Shown here in pieces: positions 22,805 to 63,686 of a DNA stretch of 64,000 nucleotides. The position numbers and the translations under genes are program-made. The stretch spans positions 682,001 to 746,000 of the forward strand of contig NZ_OY762653.1 in assembly GCF_963666195.1 (NCBI RefSeq). Reading direction: 5' to 3'. The stretch comes from Trichococcus shcherbakoviae (lineage in GTDB: Bacteria; Bacillota; Bacilli; Lactobacillales; Aerococcaceae). The number at the start of each line of letters is the position of its first letter. Position 1 is the stretch's first letter. Under the pieces are notes generated by a model. That model was given only the letters and a program-made list of their open reading frames with translations. It searched no databases and was not told the origin of the DNA.

Positions 22805-23142
22805 TTTATTCTCTCCTTATTTGTGAACAATGGTTTCATTGTTTTTCATTACGTATTTGACTACAAATAAATACTAACAGATGGTTGTAAATATCCTTTG
22901 AATTCGCTGTTAACCTTTTGTAAACAGCAATGAAACCATGGGGCTGCTGCATTCCTTTCGAAAAAATTGGATAGCACTAGCTTTTATTCATTCAGACGCA
23001 ATCACGAGTCAAAACATGAATAACGCAAATTAATTCATGGTTTCAGATCCAATCACAGGTCAAAACATGAATAACACAAAGTTATCCATGGTTCCGGAAC
23101 CTGCCTCAGTAAACAACACTAAAATTGTCGAGGCACAAATCC
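22805..23142. other. Gene-free region with promoter of the importer operon and a tandem repeat
   Basis: No coding sequence. The left part is AT-rich leader of the importer operon. The right part (22992-23093) is the 51-bp tandem repeat listed separately. The terminator of nrdF closes it at 23143. Confidence 0.5.
22992..23093. repeat. Two tandem 51-bp units, each with a hairpin
   Basis: Unit 1 at 22992-23042 and unit 2 at 23043-23093 share TCAGA, AATCAC, GTCAAAACATGAATAAC and CATGGTT. Each has an internal inverted repeat that differs between units but still pairs: CATGAAT/ATTCATG in unit 1, and CATGAATAAC/GTTATCCATG (one mismatch) in unit 2. It is intergenic, between nrdF and the importer operon. 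Confidence 0.75.
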
Positions 23143-30026: not shown

Positions 30027-32180
30027 ATGTTAAGCAAGAAACTGCGACTAAAGTTGCCGATGCTCTTCATGGCTTTGGGCTTTTTTATTTTTGGATCAGC
30101 CCAGCACGAAGTAGTTGAGGCAACAGAAACACAAAAGTTTATCATCGCGACAGACACCACATTTGCACCATTTGAATTCCAGGATGCGAACGGCGAATTC
30201 GTCGGCATCGATATGGAACTCATCCAAGCGATTGCGGATGATCAAGGATTTGAGGTGGAGATTCGTCCTTTGGGATTCAATGCCGCGCTGCAGGCCTTGG
30301 AGACTAAGCAAGTTGACGGCGTCATCGCCGGCATGAGCATCACCGACGAACGCAAACAGACCTTCGATTTTTCAGAACCGTATTTTGAAAGTGGCGTGGT
30401 CATGGCAGTAGCCGATGACAGCGACATCTCAAGCTACGAAGATTTGGAAGGCCAGAATGTTGCAGTCAAAACAGGTACGGAAGGCGCAACATTTGCCGAA
30501 TCCATCAAGGATGAATATGGCTTCACTACCACCGTTTTTGAAGATTCCGCCAATATGTATCAGGATGTCCTGTCCGGCAATTCTGTAGCGGCATTCGAAG
30601 ATTACCCAGTAATGGCCTACGCCATCGAAGACCAAGGTTTGGCTCTGAAATTGGCTACAGACAAAGAATCCGGCAGTTCATACGGTTTTGCAGTCGCTAA
30701 AGACACAAATCCTGAATTGTTGGCAATGTTCAATGCAGGTTTGGCCAACCTGAAAGCGGACGGCACTTACCAAGCCATCCAAGAGAAATACCTCGGTGCT
30801 TCCGTTGATACAAGTCTGGATGTCCCAGCACAGAACGGAAAAACGTATATCATCGCAACCGACACAACTTTCGCTCCATTCGAATTCCAGGACGCTAACG
30901 GCAACTATGTGGGTATCGACATGGATTTGATCCGCGAAATCGCTAAAGACCAAGGTTTCGGAATCGAAATCCGTCCGCTAGGATTCAATGCGGCCCTTCA
31001 AGCGTTGGAAGCTAAACAAGTGGATGCTGTCATCGCCGGCATGAGCATCACCGACGAACGCAAACAGACTTTTGATTTTTCTGAACCGTATTTCGAAAGC
31101 GGTGTGGTTATGGCTGTTGCCGCCGATAGCGACATCGACAGCTATGAGGACCTGGAAGGTCTGACCGTTGCAGTCAAAACCGGTACGGAAGGCGCAACTT
31201 TTGCAGAATCCATCAAGGACGAATATGGCTTCACTTTATCGACTTTCGATGATTCAGCCAACATGTATCAAGACGTCATCGCCGGCAATTCCGTTGCGGC
31301 ATTTGAAGATTACCCGGTTATGGCTTATGCCATCGAAGGTCAAGGCATCGCATTGAAACTGGCTACTGAGAAAGAAGCCGGTGGATCTTACGGAATCGCA
31401 GTCGCAAAAGACACGAACCCGGAATTGTTGAACATGATCAACACAGGATTGGCAAACTTGCAGTCCAATGGTACTTATGAAGAAATCGTCAACGACTATC
31501 TAGGTTCCGACACAGAAGAAAGCAACACTTCCTTCTTCGGACTGATCCAGGAAAACTGGAAAACTTTGTTGCAAGGTTTGGGAAGAACCATCCTGATCAC
31601 TTTTGCATCCATTGTGATCGCTTTGGCATTGGGTATCTTCATCGGATTGTTCAGCGTTTCCCCTAACAAAGCATTGAACTGGATCGCAACCATCTATGTC
31701 GACATCATGCGTGGTGTGCCGTTGATCGTCTTGGCATTCTTCGTATACTTCTCGATTCCGCAATTGATGGGCATCCGGATGAGCTCGACAGTTGCAGGAA
31801 TCATCACTTTGAGTTTGAATGCAGCAGCTTATCTGGCTGAAATCTTCCGCGGCGGTATCAAAGCTGTTGATGTCGGACAGATGGAAGCAGGACGCAGCTT
31901 AGGTCTGACTTATCAAACAACGATGAACAAAATCATTTTGCCGCAAGCAATCCGCATCATGATTCCTTCATTCATCAACCAATTCGTCATTACTTTGAAA
32001 GACACTTCCATTCTGTCAATCATCGGCCTTGTCGAATTGACACAAACCGGTAAAATCATCATCGCCAGAACCTATGCTTCCGGCAACATGTGGTTAATCA
32101 TCGGATTGATGTACATCATCGTCATCACTATCCTTACGAAGATTTCAAAAAAACTTGAAGGGAGATTAAAGAATGGCTAA
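30027..32180 (+). CDS. glnP: Amino-acid ABC transporter: two tandem substrate-binding domains fused to permease (GlnP type)
   Basis: 717 aa. A signal/anchor segment ([21 protein letters not shown]) is followed by binding domain 1 (about 36-256), binding domain 2 (about 273-494) and a permease domain (about 515-715) with HisM/GlnP-type EAA loop [22 protein letters not shown]. Both binding domains share [57 protein letters not shown] and [17 protein letters not shown] and are about 80% identical by eye, much closer than the two domains of well-studied GlnP. It overlaps the ATPase gene by 8 bp. Glutamine/glutamate or a related polar amino acid is the likely substrate. Confidence 0.92.
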
Positions 32181-36313: not shown

Positions 36314-38464
36314 ATGTGCCCAATGATGGAATCAGATAGCAAACCCAATCTTGCTAATGCGGATTATTATTTCAATCGGGAGCTGAGTTGGCTGGAATTC
36401 AACAAACGTGTCATTGAGGAAGCAAAAGATCCTCAGAACCCTTTGCTTGAACAGCTGAACTTTTTATCCATAGCAAGTTCCAATCTTGATGAATTCTACA
36501 TGGTTCGAGTTGCCGGATTACAGGATCAGTTCAAACTTGGCTATCATTTGACCGACACCAAAACCGATATGAGACCTCTTGAACAGTTGTCTGCTATCTC
36601 CGATAAGAATAACGATAACATCGCCTTACAATACGAGTACTATTATGAACTTTTGAATAAATTGGCTGAGAAGAATGTCCGCATCAAAAAAATCAGCGAT
36701 CTTTCCAAAAGTGAATTTGCTATCGTAGAAGAAACTTTCCACGAGCAAATTTTTCCCGCTTTGACGCCGCTAGGGATCGATGCATACCGCCCCTTCCCTA
36801 ACTTGAACAACAAACTGATCCATATTTTCATCAACTTGGAGAAGGAGGACACGACCCGGGTTGCGATTGTGCCTGTTCCCGCACTGCTGCAACGGTTCAT
36901 CTTGTTGGATGAGGACAAAAACGATATCGGCATCGTCCTGTTGGAAGATGTTGTGCGCCATTTCATCCATACCTTATTCAAAGGTTTCACTGTCACGAAC
37001 AGTTTCAGCTGCCGGATCACACGTAATGCCGATTTGGAATTGCATGAGGATGGTGCGGATGATCTGCTTTTGGTCATCCAGGATTACCTGAAGAAGCGCA
37101 AAAACGGAATGGCAGTCCGCCTTGAAGTCGACACACGCGATACAATCGATTCACTACAGGGAGATGTGCGCTTTCTGCAGACAGAACTGGATCTTGACGA
37201 TCGCGATGTCTACCTGATTGATGGCCCATTGGATCTTACTTTCCTCAGCAAATTGACGCGTCATCTGGCGATTGCTTCGCCGGATGACGTTTACCCTGAC
37301 TTCTCACCGGTCACACCGAGTGATTTATCAGGAAAAGACATCTTTGATGTGGTCGAAAAGCAGGACGTCTTCTTGCACCATCCCTATGATTCGTTTGATC
37401 CGGTCGTCGATTTCATCAAGAGCGCCGCTGAAGATGAGGATACGATCGCCATCAAGCAGACCCTTTACCGTGTCAGCAAAGATTCACCGATCATCGAAGG
37501 GTTGAAGACGGCAGCCGAATCCGGCAAACAGGTCACCGTGCTTGTCGAACTGAAAGCCCGTTTCGACGAAGAGAACAATGTGCAATGGGCCAAGGAATTG
37601 GAAGAAGCCGGTGCACATGTCCTTTACGGGATGACCCACTTGAAGACTCACAGCAAGATCACGATGGTCGTAAAGAAACATCATGACCGGATCGTCCGCT
37701 ATGTCCATCTGGCTACCGGCAATTATAACGATAAGACAGCCAGACTTTATACCGATATGGCCATCTTCACCGCCAATAAGGAAATCGGCGAGGATGCCAC
37801 TAACTTCTTCAACTACTTGAGCGGCTATTCCGATCAACCGGAGTACAATCACCTGCACGTGTCCCCATTCGAAATCCGTGATTCCTTTATCGAGTACATC
37901 GATGACGAAATCTCCTCGCATGAACAATTCGGGAATGGGCATATCATTGCGAAAATGAATTCCTTGACCGATAAACGCGTCATCATGAAACTGTACGAAG
38001 CCAGCCAAGCCGGCGTCCGGGTCGATTTGATCATCCGCGGCATCTGCTGCCTGAAACCCCAAGTGCCGGGCGTCAGCGAGAACATCCATGTCCGCAGCAT
38101 CGTCGGCCGCTTCCTGGAGCATAGCCGGATCTACTATTTCCATCATAATGGGGATGAAAATCTTTTTCTTTCTTCCGCTGACATGATGACCCGCAATATG
38201 ATCAAACGCGTCGAAATAGAGTTTCCGATCCTGGACAAAGCCATCAAGAAGGAAATCCTGTCTTTGATGGATGTCTACCTCGCCGACAACACGAAAGCGC
38301 GCGAACTGCACCCTGACGGGACCTATCGACACGTCCGTAACGATAAACCAGCGGTGGATGCGCAAAAATATTTCATGGAACTGGCGAATAAAGAAAAAGA
38401 AATCCCAATACTCTCTGAAAAAGATTCCTGGTTAAAAAAAATCCAACGAAGATTCAAAAAATAA
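36314..38464 (+). CDS. ppk: Polyphosphate kinase 1
   Basis: 716 aa, full-length PPK1 that polymerises phosphate from ATP. N domain: YYFNRELSWLEFNKRVIEEA and SNLDEFYMVRVAGL; H domain with LTPLGIDAYRPFPNLNN; catalytic C1/C2 domains (phospholipase-D-like) with AIKQTLYRVSKDSPII, LVELKARFDEENN, GMTHLKTHSKITMVVKK (the autophosphorylated His lies in THSK), VHLATGNYNDKTARLYTD and LIIRGICCL. The start may be this ATG or one of the two ATGs a few codons on; no strong ribosome binding site is visible. An unusual 3' element begins right after the stop (38465-38598). Confidence 0.96.
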   Translation: MCPMMESDSKPNLANADYYFNRELSWLEFNKRVIEEAKDPQNPLLEQLNFLSIASSNLDEFYMVRVAGLQDQFKLGYHLTDTKTDMRPLEQLSAISDKNNDNIALQYEYYYELLNKLAEKNVRIKKISDLSKSEFAIVEETFHEQIFPALTPLGIDAYRPFPNLNNKLIHIFINLEKEDTTRVAIVPVPALLQRFILLDEDKNDIGIVLLEDVVRHFIHTLFKGFTVTNSFSCRITRNADLELHEDGADDLLLVIQDYLKKRKNGMAVRLEVDTRDTIDSLQGDVRFLQTELDLDDRDVYLIDGPLDLTFLSKLTRHLAIASPDDVYPDFSPVTPSDLSGKDIFDVVEKQDVFLHHPYDSFDPVVDFIKSAAEDEDTIAIKQTLYRVSKDSPIIEGLKTAAESGKQVTVLVELKARFDEENNVQWAKELEEAGAHVLYGMTHLKTHSKITMVVKKHHDRIVRYVHLATGNYNDKTARLYTDMAIFTANKEIGEDATNFFNYLSGYSDQPEYNHLHVSPFEIRDSFIEYIDDEISSHEQFGNGHIIAKMNSLTDKRVIMKLYEASQAGVRVDLIIRGICCLKPQVPGVSENIHVRSIVGRFLEHSRIYYFHHNGDENLFLSSADMMTRNMIKRVEIEFPILDKAIKKEILSLMDVYLADNTKARELHPDGTYRHVRNDKPAVDAQKYFMELANKEKEIPILSEKDSWLKKIQRRFKK

Positions 38465-38598
38465 GAAAAGCGGAACGGGTTCGTTCAGCCCTGAATGAAA
38501 TTTAGGAAATTGGACCAACTGAGCATCGTAGAGCGCAATAGGCCCAATTTATCTAATTTCCGAAGGGCTAACCCGTGAAGCTAGCCAACGATTTGGAA
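38465..38598 (+). repeat. Post-stop hairpin element, copy 1 (after ppk)
   Basis: A ~135-bp element starting at the ppk stop codon. The core (38476-38575, 100 nt) folds as one long hairpin: CGGGTT/AACCCG, AGCCCT/AGGGCT, GAAATT/AATTTC, AAATTGG/CCAATTT, closed by a 24-nt loop containing CTGAGCATCGTAGAGCGC. A second copy (58352-58489, opposite orientation) follows leuD. The two share the loop unchanged and carry paired compensatory changes in the stem. There is no T-run, so it is not itself a terminator; the terminator is further on. Confidence 0.85.
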
Positions 38599-38638
38599 CG
38601 CATGAAACATTTCATAAATTCCTATATAACGGCAGAAA

Positions 38639-38679
38639 GAAGAAGGTCAAGAGCTGCGCGCTCCTGACCTTCTTTTTTT
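38639..38679. terminator. Terminator between ppk and brnQ
   Basis: AGAAGGTCA(agagc)...TGACCTTCT stem; strong T-run on the plus strand (TTTTTTT), weaker on the minus, so mainly for ppk, possibly for brnQ too. Confidence 0.85.
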
Positions 38680-55439: not shown

Positions 55440-55500
55440 TTGAACCAAATCGTTTGCAGCCATATTGTATTTTCAATGGCTGTGTATTTTTTGCCTCGCA

Positions 55501-55629
55501 ACTCCGGCGAGGCTTCTTTCGCCGGAGTAGACCGGTAATATTATGTCTCTTCTCCGAGGGGGCTTCTGCCCACAGGAGGAGACCATCAGAATGTGGTCCT
55601 CAACTCCGGACAATCACCCCTCGCCGGAG
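55501..55629. repeat. Triple GC-rich hairpin array, copy B (51-bp period)
   Basis: Hairpins at 55501-55528 (ACTCCGGCGA/TCGCCGGAGT, ten perfect base pairs), 55551-55580 (TCTCC/GGAGGA) and 55604-55629 (CTCCGG/CCGGAG), starting at intervals of 50 and 52 bp. Same family as arrays A and C. Lies between the nspC terminator and the CapA promoter. Confidence 0.75.
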
Positions 55630-55635
55630 AACAGC

Positions 55636-55661
55636 AAAAAAGCTGCCTCCTCAGAGACAGC
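55636..55661 (-). terminator. Terminator of the carboxynorspermidine operon
   Basis: GCTGTCTC/GAGGCAGC stem (one T-G pair), tetraloop, TTTTTT on the minus strand, 14 nt after the nspC stop. Confidence 0.8.
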
Positions 55662-58174: not shown

Positions 58175-58231
58175 CGACAACATATCGTCATATTTCATAG
58201 ACCTTGACACAGCTCCATCTTACCTTAATTC

Positions 58232-58277
58232 AAAAAAACAAGCGAGAATTTCCCTCCAATTGAAGGAAATTTCTCGC
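58232..58277 (-). terminator. Terminator of leuABCD
   Basis: GCGAGAAATTTCC and its near complement around a short loop with a TTTTTTT tail on the minus strand. It lies ~215 nt after the leuD stop, leaving a long 3' UTR that includes the hairpin element. Confidence 0.85.
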
Positions 58278-58351
58278 CTATCCTATTAAAATTTTTAAAA
58301 ATTTAAAATGCATCACCCTCGGTGTTTGAAGTACTCCCAAAGTGTTCCCCG

Positions 58352-58489
58352 CACCAATAATGATGGCTAGTTCCACGGATTAGCCCTTCGAAAATTAGAT
58401 AAATCGGGCCTATTGCGCTCTACGATGCTCAGTCGGTCCGATTTCCTAAATTTCTTTCAGGGCTGAACGAATCCGTTCCACTTTTCTAT
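58352..58489 (-). repeat. Post-stop hairpin element, copy 2 (after leuD)
   Basis: Minus-strand copy of the element behind ppk, beginning 1 nt after the leuD TAG. Core hairpin 58376-58475, exactly 100 nt as in copy 1: CGGATT/AATCCG, AGCCCT/AGGGCT, AAATCGG/CCGATTT. Relative to copy 1, a G-C pair has become A-T and a T-A pair has become C-G, both compensatory. The loop CTGAGCATCGTAGAGCGC is unchanged. It lies within the leu transcript, upstream of its terminator. Confidence 0.85.
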
Positions 58490-59077
58490 CTATGCGTAAA
58501 TATTGTCCCATTTTGCTTCATACGCATCAATCTCATCTTTATAGGCCATCGTTTCGGTGATGTCGTCGATGCCGTTTTCCAATTTGTGCTTCCAAGTCGG
58601 ATCGATGGCGAAAGGATACTCTGCAGTGCTGGTTCTTACTACTTGATTCGGCAAATCGATTTGGATGGTTTCATCCGCAGACAACTGCGCCAAAGCGTCA
58701 CGCTGCTCTTGCGGCAACTCAATCAACAACAAGCCATTCTTCAAGGAATTCATGTAGAAGATATCGCTGTAACTGCCGGCGATGATGACGCGGAAACGGT
58801 AATCCTTCAATGCCCAAGCGGCATGTTCACGGGAAGAGCCGCAGCCGAAGTTATCCCCTGTTACGAGGATCGTTGCTTCTTGGCGGTCGGCATCGTTCAA
58901 AGGGAACTCCGGATTCGGGTCGCCGTTTTTCAGGAAACGCCATTCATCAAAAACGAAAGCGCCGAAGCCCGTTTTTTCGATCCGTTTCAGAAATACTTTC
59001 GGGATGATTTGGTCGGTGTCGATGTTGTTGTTCATCAAGGCAACGGTTTTACCGTTATGTACTTTAATTGGCTCCAT
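58490..59077 (-). CDS. leuD: 3-isopropylmalate dehydratase small subunit LeuD
   Basis: 195 aa swivel-domain subunit of isopropylmalate isomerase. [75 protein letters not shown] (reads [18 protein letters not shown]) and DLPNQVV are diagnostic. It overlaps leuC by 14 bp and is last in leuABCD. Confidence 0.97.
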
Positions 59078-63441: not shown

Positions 63442-63529
63442 CCCCTTTTGCTGTTTCCTTACAAAATCATGTGACGGTGTGTGGAACCGGAGGAGCGCGG
63501 TGGACTGTGGTCGATGATTATGGTCCCCA

Positions 63530-63657
63530 ACTCCGATTAGGCCCCTTTCATCGGAGTTCACCGGTAACTTTCGGCTTCTCCTCCGGCGAAGCCTCGCTCA
63601 TCGGAGGAGGCAACTCTAAATGTTAGTCCAACTCCGGCGAGGCCTCCGTCCCCGGAG
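63530..63657. repeat. Triple GC-rich hairpin array, copy C (51-bp period)
   Basis: Hairpins at 63530-63558 (ACTCCGAT/ATCGGAGT), 63580-63608 (CTCCG/CGGAG) and 63631-63657 (CTCCGG/CCGGAG), starts 50-51 bp apart; a lone CCGGAGGAG right arm precedes them at 63487. The linker GTCC(C/T)CAACTCCG recurs in copy B. Lies between the leu promoter and the terminator of the next gene. Confidence 0.75.
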
Positions 63658-63686
63658 CAGAGCGATATAATCTCAGGCAGTACACT

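What the first reader, a model, noticed from the sequence alone, without database searches (positions are those of the whole stretch)
38465..38598. Post-stop hairpin element (copy after ppk) with compensatory changes relative to the leuD copy
Seen: the segment right after the ppk stop and the one after leuD (58352-58489, inverted orientation) are nearly identical over ~135 bp. Each forms a 100-nt hairpin. Two stem positions changed in both partners (G-C to A-T, T-A to C-G), while the 24-nt apical loop is almost unchanged. Inferred: the folded form is selected, either as RNA in the 3' UTR (stability, processing, protein binding) or as a mobile palindrome that inserts after stop codons. I know no named element of this sequence.
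Basis: seen in the sequence. Interest (0 to 1): 0.78.

Follow-up and report, generated by a model that had tools for sequence, protein, structure and literature searches.

The report
Mobile folded repeat beside bacterial terminators
The hairpin after the ppk gene is one copy of a short, non-coding, folded piece of DNA that has spread many times in this bacterium and its relatives, often into the gap between a gene's stop codon and its transcription terminator; its fold is conserved, but what moves it is not known.

Summary
Confirmed and widened. The ppk and leuD copies are 2 of 40 in this Trichococcus genome. None of 39 lies inside a called ORF; in 21 of 39 the 5' end lies 0-10 nt after a co-oriented stop codon, by a crude gene caller. 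In 34 representative cores 99.4% of paired cells hold and 12 of 32 pairs change on both sides. G-T mispairs exceed A-C (71 to 7 cells, 13 to 5 pairs; 47 to 0 in a relative), which favours a one-strand fold, most simply RNA. It is mobile: of 20 own copies compared with a conspecific genome, 12 are absent there. Terminator-like hairpins follow the right end more often than controls. Orthologous copies differ by whole hairpin modules. A covariance model matches 84 of 395 sampled Lactobacillales-order genomes; one holds 136 right ends, with no protein-coding member among 80 stretches read. Closest named element: EFAR/Efa-1 of Enterococcus faecalis, whose letters I could not compare. I read it as a non-autonomous EFAR-like mobile element whose fold is selected. 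No enzyme was found: three families do not track it.

The parts
36314..38464 (+). ppk (polyphosphate kinase) ORF; its TAA stop ends on the base before the element
38465..38589 (+). element core, ppk copy (long hairpin)
38590..38626 (+). shortened 3' tail of the ppk copy, ending CCTATA
   Evidence: end from empty sites
38462..38464 (+). TAA at left junction (stop codon of ppk); TAA recurs at 38627-38629
   Evidence: empty sites AAATAA|CGGC
38640..38679 (+). intrinsic-terminator-like hairpin with T-run after the ppk copy
   Evidence: read; also present in empty sites
58490..59077 (-). leuD ORF, stop TAG at 58490-58492
58362..58486 (-). element core, leuD copy
58281..58361 (-). 3' tail of the leuD copy with a second hairpin; TA at 58279-58280 and at 58487-58488
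58229..58278 (-). terminator-like hairpin after the leuD copy
   Evidence: read; present in empty sites L179-L182

Best explanation
A non-autonomous, non-coding mobile element of an EFAR-like superfamily found in many genera of the order Lactobacillales. Anatomy: a 5' end GAAAAGC, one long hairpin whose stems covary while its loops stay fixed, an end near AGCTAGMCAWC, and in many copies a 3' tail with a second hairpin ending near TTTCCTA. Exchangeable hairpin modules sit inside the core. Shown: it is repeated, dispersed and polymorphic within a species; clean junctions carry TA on both sides; many copies lie between a stop codon and a terminator, in the sense orientation; pairing is conserved and G-T mispairs exceed A-C. 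Inferred: it is transcribed from the upstream gene as part of the 3' UTR, and the folded sense strand (RNA more likely than single-stranded DNA) is recognised by an unidentified trans-acting factor for movement. An effect on the host mRNA is a possible by-product.
For: 40 copies in the genome. Covariation: 12 of 32 pairs with double changes, score 0.168 against 0.079 in shuffles and at most 0.054 with partners slid. Mispairs: G-T 71 cells against A-C 7, or 13 pairs against 5; G064 one pair G-T 47, A-T 30, G-C 7, A-C 0 of 84 read; one pair is G-T in 102 of 104 cores. Empty sites: ppk absent in 11 of 13 genus genomes, leuD absent in 10 of 12; 12 of 20 further copies absent in the conspecific G009. 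G064: 136 right ends, 40 copies of median identity 98.4%. Terminator-like hairpin after the right end: 19 of 40 and 21 of 39, against 4 of 40 and 6-7 of 39 upstream. Module swaps at one site.
Against: No enzyme or coding partner found. No transcript data. One of the five covariation measures (further pair types, 18) does not exceed shuffles (mean 19.6), the structure was derived from the same sequences, and copies are related, so cell counts are not independent; per pair the G-T excess is only 13 to 5, and 3 to 3 in the type I inner stem. Only 3 of the 12 within-species empty sites have clean TA junctions (L008, L023, L028); 4 are less clean and 5 have altered flanks. Right ends of own copies were approximated. 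In one group (g38) the left end abuts a Shine-Dalgarno of a divergent gene in 10 of the 12 loci listed (by eye), which does not fit a 3' UTR role.
Confidence: 0.65

Rival explanations
1. An ordinary DNA MITE: ends recognised as double-stranded DNA by a TA-targeting transposase (IS630/mariner type) acting in trans; the hairpin is incidental or only helps tolerance.
For: TA at both ends of the clean sites and at G064 right ends, T 39 and A 40 of 40; no coding capacity. RUP of pneumococcus is thought to be moved by IS630-Spn1 (PMC3049150, section 6).
Against: No terminal inverted repeats apart from an inner, subterminal one; loops are better conserved than a spacer needs to be; G-T over A-C; orientation bias to the abutting gene. 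IS630 genes were not searched.
Confidence: 0.2
2. A host-serving 3' UTR RNA: the hairpin protects mRNA 3' ends or tunes read-through, and copies are kept for that function.
For: Sense orientation next to stop codons, conserved loops and covarying stems.
Against: Presence differs between conspecific genomes at 12 of 20 sites examined; G064 copies are a recent burst with few stop-codon neighbours; in g38 loci it abuts a Shine-Dalgarno.
Confidence: 0.1
3. A single-stranded DNA element of the IS200/IS605 or REP/RAYT type, recognised as a DNA hairpin.
For: Fixed 5' flank (T-A/T-A in G064); long hairpin; one-strand preference.
Against: Y1 transposase is missing in G004, which has 21 copies and 98% completeness; association is otherwise 15 of 16 against 21 of 60, so a link is not excluded; hairpin far longer than the ends of that family (recalled).
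Confidence: 0.05

Closest known systems
EFAR / Efa-1 repeats of Enterococcus faecalis
   Same: Efa-1 is 163 nt, 65 copies, intergenic, a double hairpin (PMC2267715, passages); EFAR is listed as an enterococcal MITE (PMC3733652, passage). Copies L248 and L252 found here fold as two hairpins of 186 and 177 nt. Recalled EFAR abstract: modular, 42-650 bp, mostly 170 bp, inserts at stem-loops.
   Different: Sequence never compared (letters not held). Here the family is followed through 20 of 80 sampled genera, with covariation and mispair tests and within-species empty sites; some groups lack the tail hairpin.
BOX elements of Streptococcus pneumoniae
   Same: Modular structured repeats with variable internal units, varying in length between strains at one site, thought parasitic (PMC3049150, abstract and sections 5 and 6)
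   Different: BOX is described with terminal inverted repeats; the BOX sequence was not compared; BOX lies at all distances from genes, ours mostly next to a stop codon in Trichococcus
bcr repeats of the Bacillus cereus group; REP/BIME
   Same: Interspersed repeats that can be part of UTRs, some MITE-like (PMC3446304, passages)
   Different: Other hosts; no sequence link tested; REPs are 20-40 bp (PMC3733652, abstract in listing)
Bridge RNA of IS110-type elements (recalled)
   Same: Structured RNA of about this size, two-base core, targets that can be hairpins; works-like analogy only
   Different: No recombinase gene in the element; Transposase_20 present in 8 of 16 positive genomes only

Membership tests
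EFAR / Efa-1 | intergenic repeat of about 163-170 bp folding as two adjacent hairpins | tested here: met
   leuD copy, L014, L248, L252 fold so; many Trichococcus copies lack the full tail
EFAR / Efa-1 | variable assembly of sequence types (recalled) | tested here: met
   modules X, Y, Z and two outer-stem types; swaps at one site
EFAR / Efa-1 | insertion at a stem-loop target that is partly deleted (recalled) | tested here: inconclusive
   terminator-like hairpin next to about half of copies; some flanks altered, others clean
EFAR / Efa-1 | sequence identity to EFAR of E. faecalis V583 | not testable with these tools
   paper not held; genomes of the genome search are unnamed
MITE (DDE type) | terminal inverted repeats | tested here: not met
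   left GAAAAGC, right ends ..CCTATA or ..CTAGTC; inner arms only are complementary
MITE (DDE type) | target site duplication | tested here: inconclusive
   TA or TAA on both sides of clean sites (L008, L023, L028, L066, ppk); could also be part of the element
MITE (DDE type) | parent transposon with the same ends | tested here: not met
   none among 40 own copies or 80 G064 stretches; other genomes not examined
IS200/IS605 or REP/RAYT | Y1 transposase in the same genome | tested here: not met
   present in 15 of 16 positive genomes, none in G004 with 21 copies
Rfam families | match of the element above or near cut-off | tested here: not met
   none at gathering score in the window; no credible match to the element in 11 loci at E<=1
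BOX | boxA/boxB/boxC sequence | not tested
   letters not at hand

The most novel reading that the evidence does not exclude
A bacterial mobile element that moves through, or is guided by, its own folded RNA: a SINE-like or bridge-RNA-like non-coding parasite of Lactobacillales that inserts beside terminators in the sense of the host transcript, carries exchangeable RNA domains, and is served in trans by an enzyme not yet known.
Probability: 0.17. Interest if true: 0.9.

Novelty: new variant of a known kind. Interest (0 to 1): 0.6.

Why it matters
Small hairpin repeats are usually described genus by genus. Here one structural family can be followed through 20 of 80 sampled genera of one order, with recent movement, exchange of modules and a measurable preference for one strand's fold. 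That makes an old question directly testable: do such repeats move because their DNA is palindromic, or because their RNA folds? It also bears on how 3' UTRs and terminators of lactic acid bacteria are annotated.

Tried and rejected
Rfam: no family. The sub-threshold Ref70 match in L253 lies away from the element.

Autonomous partner: the own-genome BLAST pieces resolve into non-coding copies. In G064, 40 right ends without a listed core were a 208-bp variant; none of the 80 stretches read had a coding insert. Of 136 right ends, only 99 places were listed, so most of the rest were not read.

Helper by association in 76 family genomes, 16 of them with the element: Y1_Tnp 15 of 16 against 21 of 60, Transposase_20 8 of 16 against 17 of 60, RVT_1 8 of 16 against 23 of 60. 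None is present in all; IS630 and IS3 families untested.

'Inserts after stop codons' as the rule: dropped after G064 (6 of 40). That test needed 45 open codons within at most 150 bp, and two copies had only 50 and 84 bp upstream, so it is a lower bound.

A three-base TAA duplication was considered; TA explains more sites.

G-T against A-C: a first count of 40 to 1 was inflated, because 29 of the 40 came from a pair misaligned in the type II cores. The type-aware recount is 71 to 7 cells and 13 to 5 pairs. The same misalignment touches helix 5, which contributes no double change.

Plasmids and phages: no match for three queries in plasmids and two in phages. A G064-type query matched 13 Enterococcus plasmid records. 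One of these (L365) shares 1,631 nt at 99.7% with G327 (L240), starting at the element's left end, and 436 nt with G064 (L282); the left flanks differ.

Papers: EFAR letters not found. No paper on this repeat in Trichococcus or Carnobacterium appeared in the listings; the library is partial.

Rows dropped: L040 (74% identity) lacked the start motif and was left out. Of 113 distinct cores, 104 of 124-128 nt went into, and 34 of these into A1. Searches covered 20 own copies: L014 had no match, L025 and L044 were not fetched, L040 was not asked for, and L019 and L039 could not be aligned.

Full report
WHAT IS THERE. The window lies at 682001-746000 of a 2.93-Mb single-contig genome. So the window is from Trichococcus.

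COPIES AND ANATOMY. The query 38465-38598 gives 55 BLAST pieces in its own genome. They resolve into 40 separate elements (L001-L030, L035-L044). Most share a core of about 125-127 nt: GAAAAGCKGAACGGG..., a long imperfect hairpin with the near-invariant loop TGAGCATCGWAGAGCGCAAT, then ...GCTAGCCATC. Many continue into a tail of about 80-90 nt with a second hairpin, ending near TTTATAAATTCCTA. A second class of outer stem (GGTACAAGCCCGCTCTGCCTCG / CGAGAGGCAGGCTTGG) replaces the common one and still pairs. Of 165 element hits (own and other species, some loci overlapping), 132 have a 5' arm of standard length; most others carry extra hairpin modules that I call X and Z. Module Y, which replaces part of the 3' arm, is in 11. 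The largest own copy measured by its empty site is about 340 bp (L041).

IS THE FOLD SELECTED? On 34 representative cores, 99.4% of 1,088 cells are paired and 12 of 32 pairs change on both sides; the covariation score is 0.168, against 0.079 in shuffles and at most 0.054 with partners slid. One of the five measures (further pair types) does not exceed its shuffles, and the structure came from the same sequences. The 104 distinct cores behave alike. Strand asymmetry is a further control: each G-T mispair is an A-C mispair on the opposite strand, so mutation alone should give about equal numbers. Counted with the two apical types kept apart, and without one pair that is G-T in 102 of 104 cores, there are 71 G-T and 7 A-C cells (9 to 1 in 28 outer pairs, 36 to 5 in the type I inner stem, 26 to 1 in type II). 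Per pair this is 13 to 5, and 3 to 3 in the type I inner stem. An earlier count was inflated by misalignment. In G064 one stem pair is G-T 47, A-T 30, G-C 7 and A-C 0 in 84 elements read. So the strand that reads with the upstream gene seems to be the one whose fold matters. RNA is the simplest molecule; single-stranded DNA is not excluded. Copies are related and exchange segments, so these are not independent events.

IS IT MOBILE? Yes. The ppk site is occupied in the window's genome and in G009 and has no element in the other 11 of 13 genus genomes. The cleanest empty sites read AAATAA|CGGC where the window has AAATAA|element..TATAA|CGGC. The leuD site is occupied here and in G003, and empty in the other 10 of 12 genomes with the gene, including the conspecific G009. 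I then compared 20 further own copies with G009: 12 are absent there, 5 present, 1 reduced to an 11-nt stub, 2 not resolvable. Fifteen more own copies were matched to occupied G009 loci. Among the 12, L008, L023 and L028 have clean junctions with TA (or TAG/TAA) on both sides; L018, L029, L041 and L043 are less clean; L004, L012, L015, L020 and L030 have altered flanks. L066 is a further clean site in another species. In G064 there are 136 right ends, and 40 sampled copies have a median pairwise identity of 98.4%, which I read as a recent burst.

WHERE DOES IT LAND? By a crude gene caller, 0 of 39 own and 0 of 111 other copies lie inside an ORF of at least 90 aa. Where the upstream ORF is co-oriented, the 5' end lies 0-10 nt after its stop in 21 of 26 own cases, and no more than 10 nt after it in 52 of 65 other cases, in 7 of which the called ORF overlaps the start by 1-10 nt. 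The caller placed leuD wrongly, so these are rough; other-species copies include orthologues. In G064 the left flank is T (38 of 40), A or T, A (40 of 40) and the right flank is TA-Y-AARAAA, but only 6 of 40 abut a stop codon of a long open frame (a lower bound). A terminator-like hairpin follows the right end in 19 of 40 G064 copies and 21 of 39 own copies, starting a median 9 and 5 nt away. Upstream windows give 4 of 40 on either strand, and 6 and 7 of 39; shuffles give 4 of 200 and 14 of 195 (right ends of own copies were approximated). I conclude that the target is AT-rich DNA, often with a TA, beside a terminator's A-tract. Selection on where copies survive is not excluded. In g38 genomes the left end abuts the Shine-Dalgarno of a divergent gene instead (by eye in 10 of the 12 g38 loci listed).

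MODULES. At one site L027 carries module Y where its G009 counterpart L091 keeps the arm GGTATGATTT that pairs with ATCATACC. The G009 copy of L003 is 66 nt longer. By length, L022 and L145, L017 and L162 (both G009) and L021 and L086 (another species) also differ. G064's 208-bp variant carries a 50-nt module that resembles Y by eye (TCAGCGGGTTAGTCGAATGATAT). Exchange between dispersed copies, by recombination in the fixed blocks or during movement, is my inference.

HOW WIDE? Model R1 matches 16 of 76 genomes of the family, including all 13 Trichococcus. In an even sample of the order it matches 84 of 395 genomes and 20 of 80 genera at E <= 0.001 (only 8 candidates were scored per genome, so copy numbers there are lower bounds). 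Distant members read mostly keep GAAAAGC or TAAAAGC at the start, AATAGGAAAT...ATTTATCTTTTTTCCGA or close to it in the middle and AGCTAGA near the end, while the apical hairpin differs by group; some lie in tandem. A G064-type copy sits on 13 Enterococcus plasmid records. In the one fetched, the DNA shared with G327 begins at the element's left end and runs 1,631 nt, which suggests transfer with recombination at the element.

WHAT IT IS LIKE. The closest published family is Efa-1 of E. faecalis: 163 nt, 65 copies, intergenic, double hairpin (PMC2267715, passages). EFAR is listed as an enterococcal MITE in PMC3733652 (passage). From memory of the EFAR abstract, not read here: 42-650 bp, assembled from several sequence types, mostly 170 bp, L-shaped, inserting at stem-loops. 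Copies L248 and L252, from another family of the order that I take for Enterococcaceae, fit that description. I think it about 75% likely that EFAR belongs to this family, but I could not compare letters. BOX elements are the nearest in behaviour (PMC3049150; abstract and sections 5 and 6).

HOW IT MOVES is open. No coding relative with the same ends was seen in what I read, and three candidate enzyme families are not present in all positive genomes. My ranking: movement in trans with the folded sense strand recognised, RNA more likely than DNA; then an ordinary TA-targeting MITE; then a host-serving UTR element.

Noticed in passing
window 55499-55639 and 63528-63667; L167, L173, L174 at the ppk site: A second family of short hairpin repeats of the form CTCCGG..CCGGAG (5 copies in family D2; similar runs fill the ppk intergenic region of three relatives).
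   Followed up: no
   Followed up: partly
L042 against L323; L095 and L130: Stub-like remnants: G009 keeps only GAAAAGCGGAA at one site, and two loci keep little more than the outer stem. They could be internal deletions or excision footprints.
   Followed up: no
leuD site: L178, L179, L186: The leuD copy is shared with another species (G003) but absent from the conspecific G009: introgression, precise loss or a parallel insertion.
   Followed up: no
core UAGGAAA and tail UUUCCUA of Trichococcus copies: The most conserved core motif is complementary to the motif near the tail end; seen by eye, not tested against chance.
   Followed up: no
window 22991-23092; 30133-30432 and 30841-31140: A 51-nt tandem repeat (84%) and a 300-nt direct repeat (77%).
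   Followed up: no
L255 1586-1686; L220 1875-2116: A preQ1-II riboswitch match lies at or beside one distant copy, and a T-box leader match just under its cut-off lies downstream of another.
   Followed up: no
   Followed up: partly
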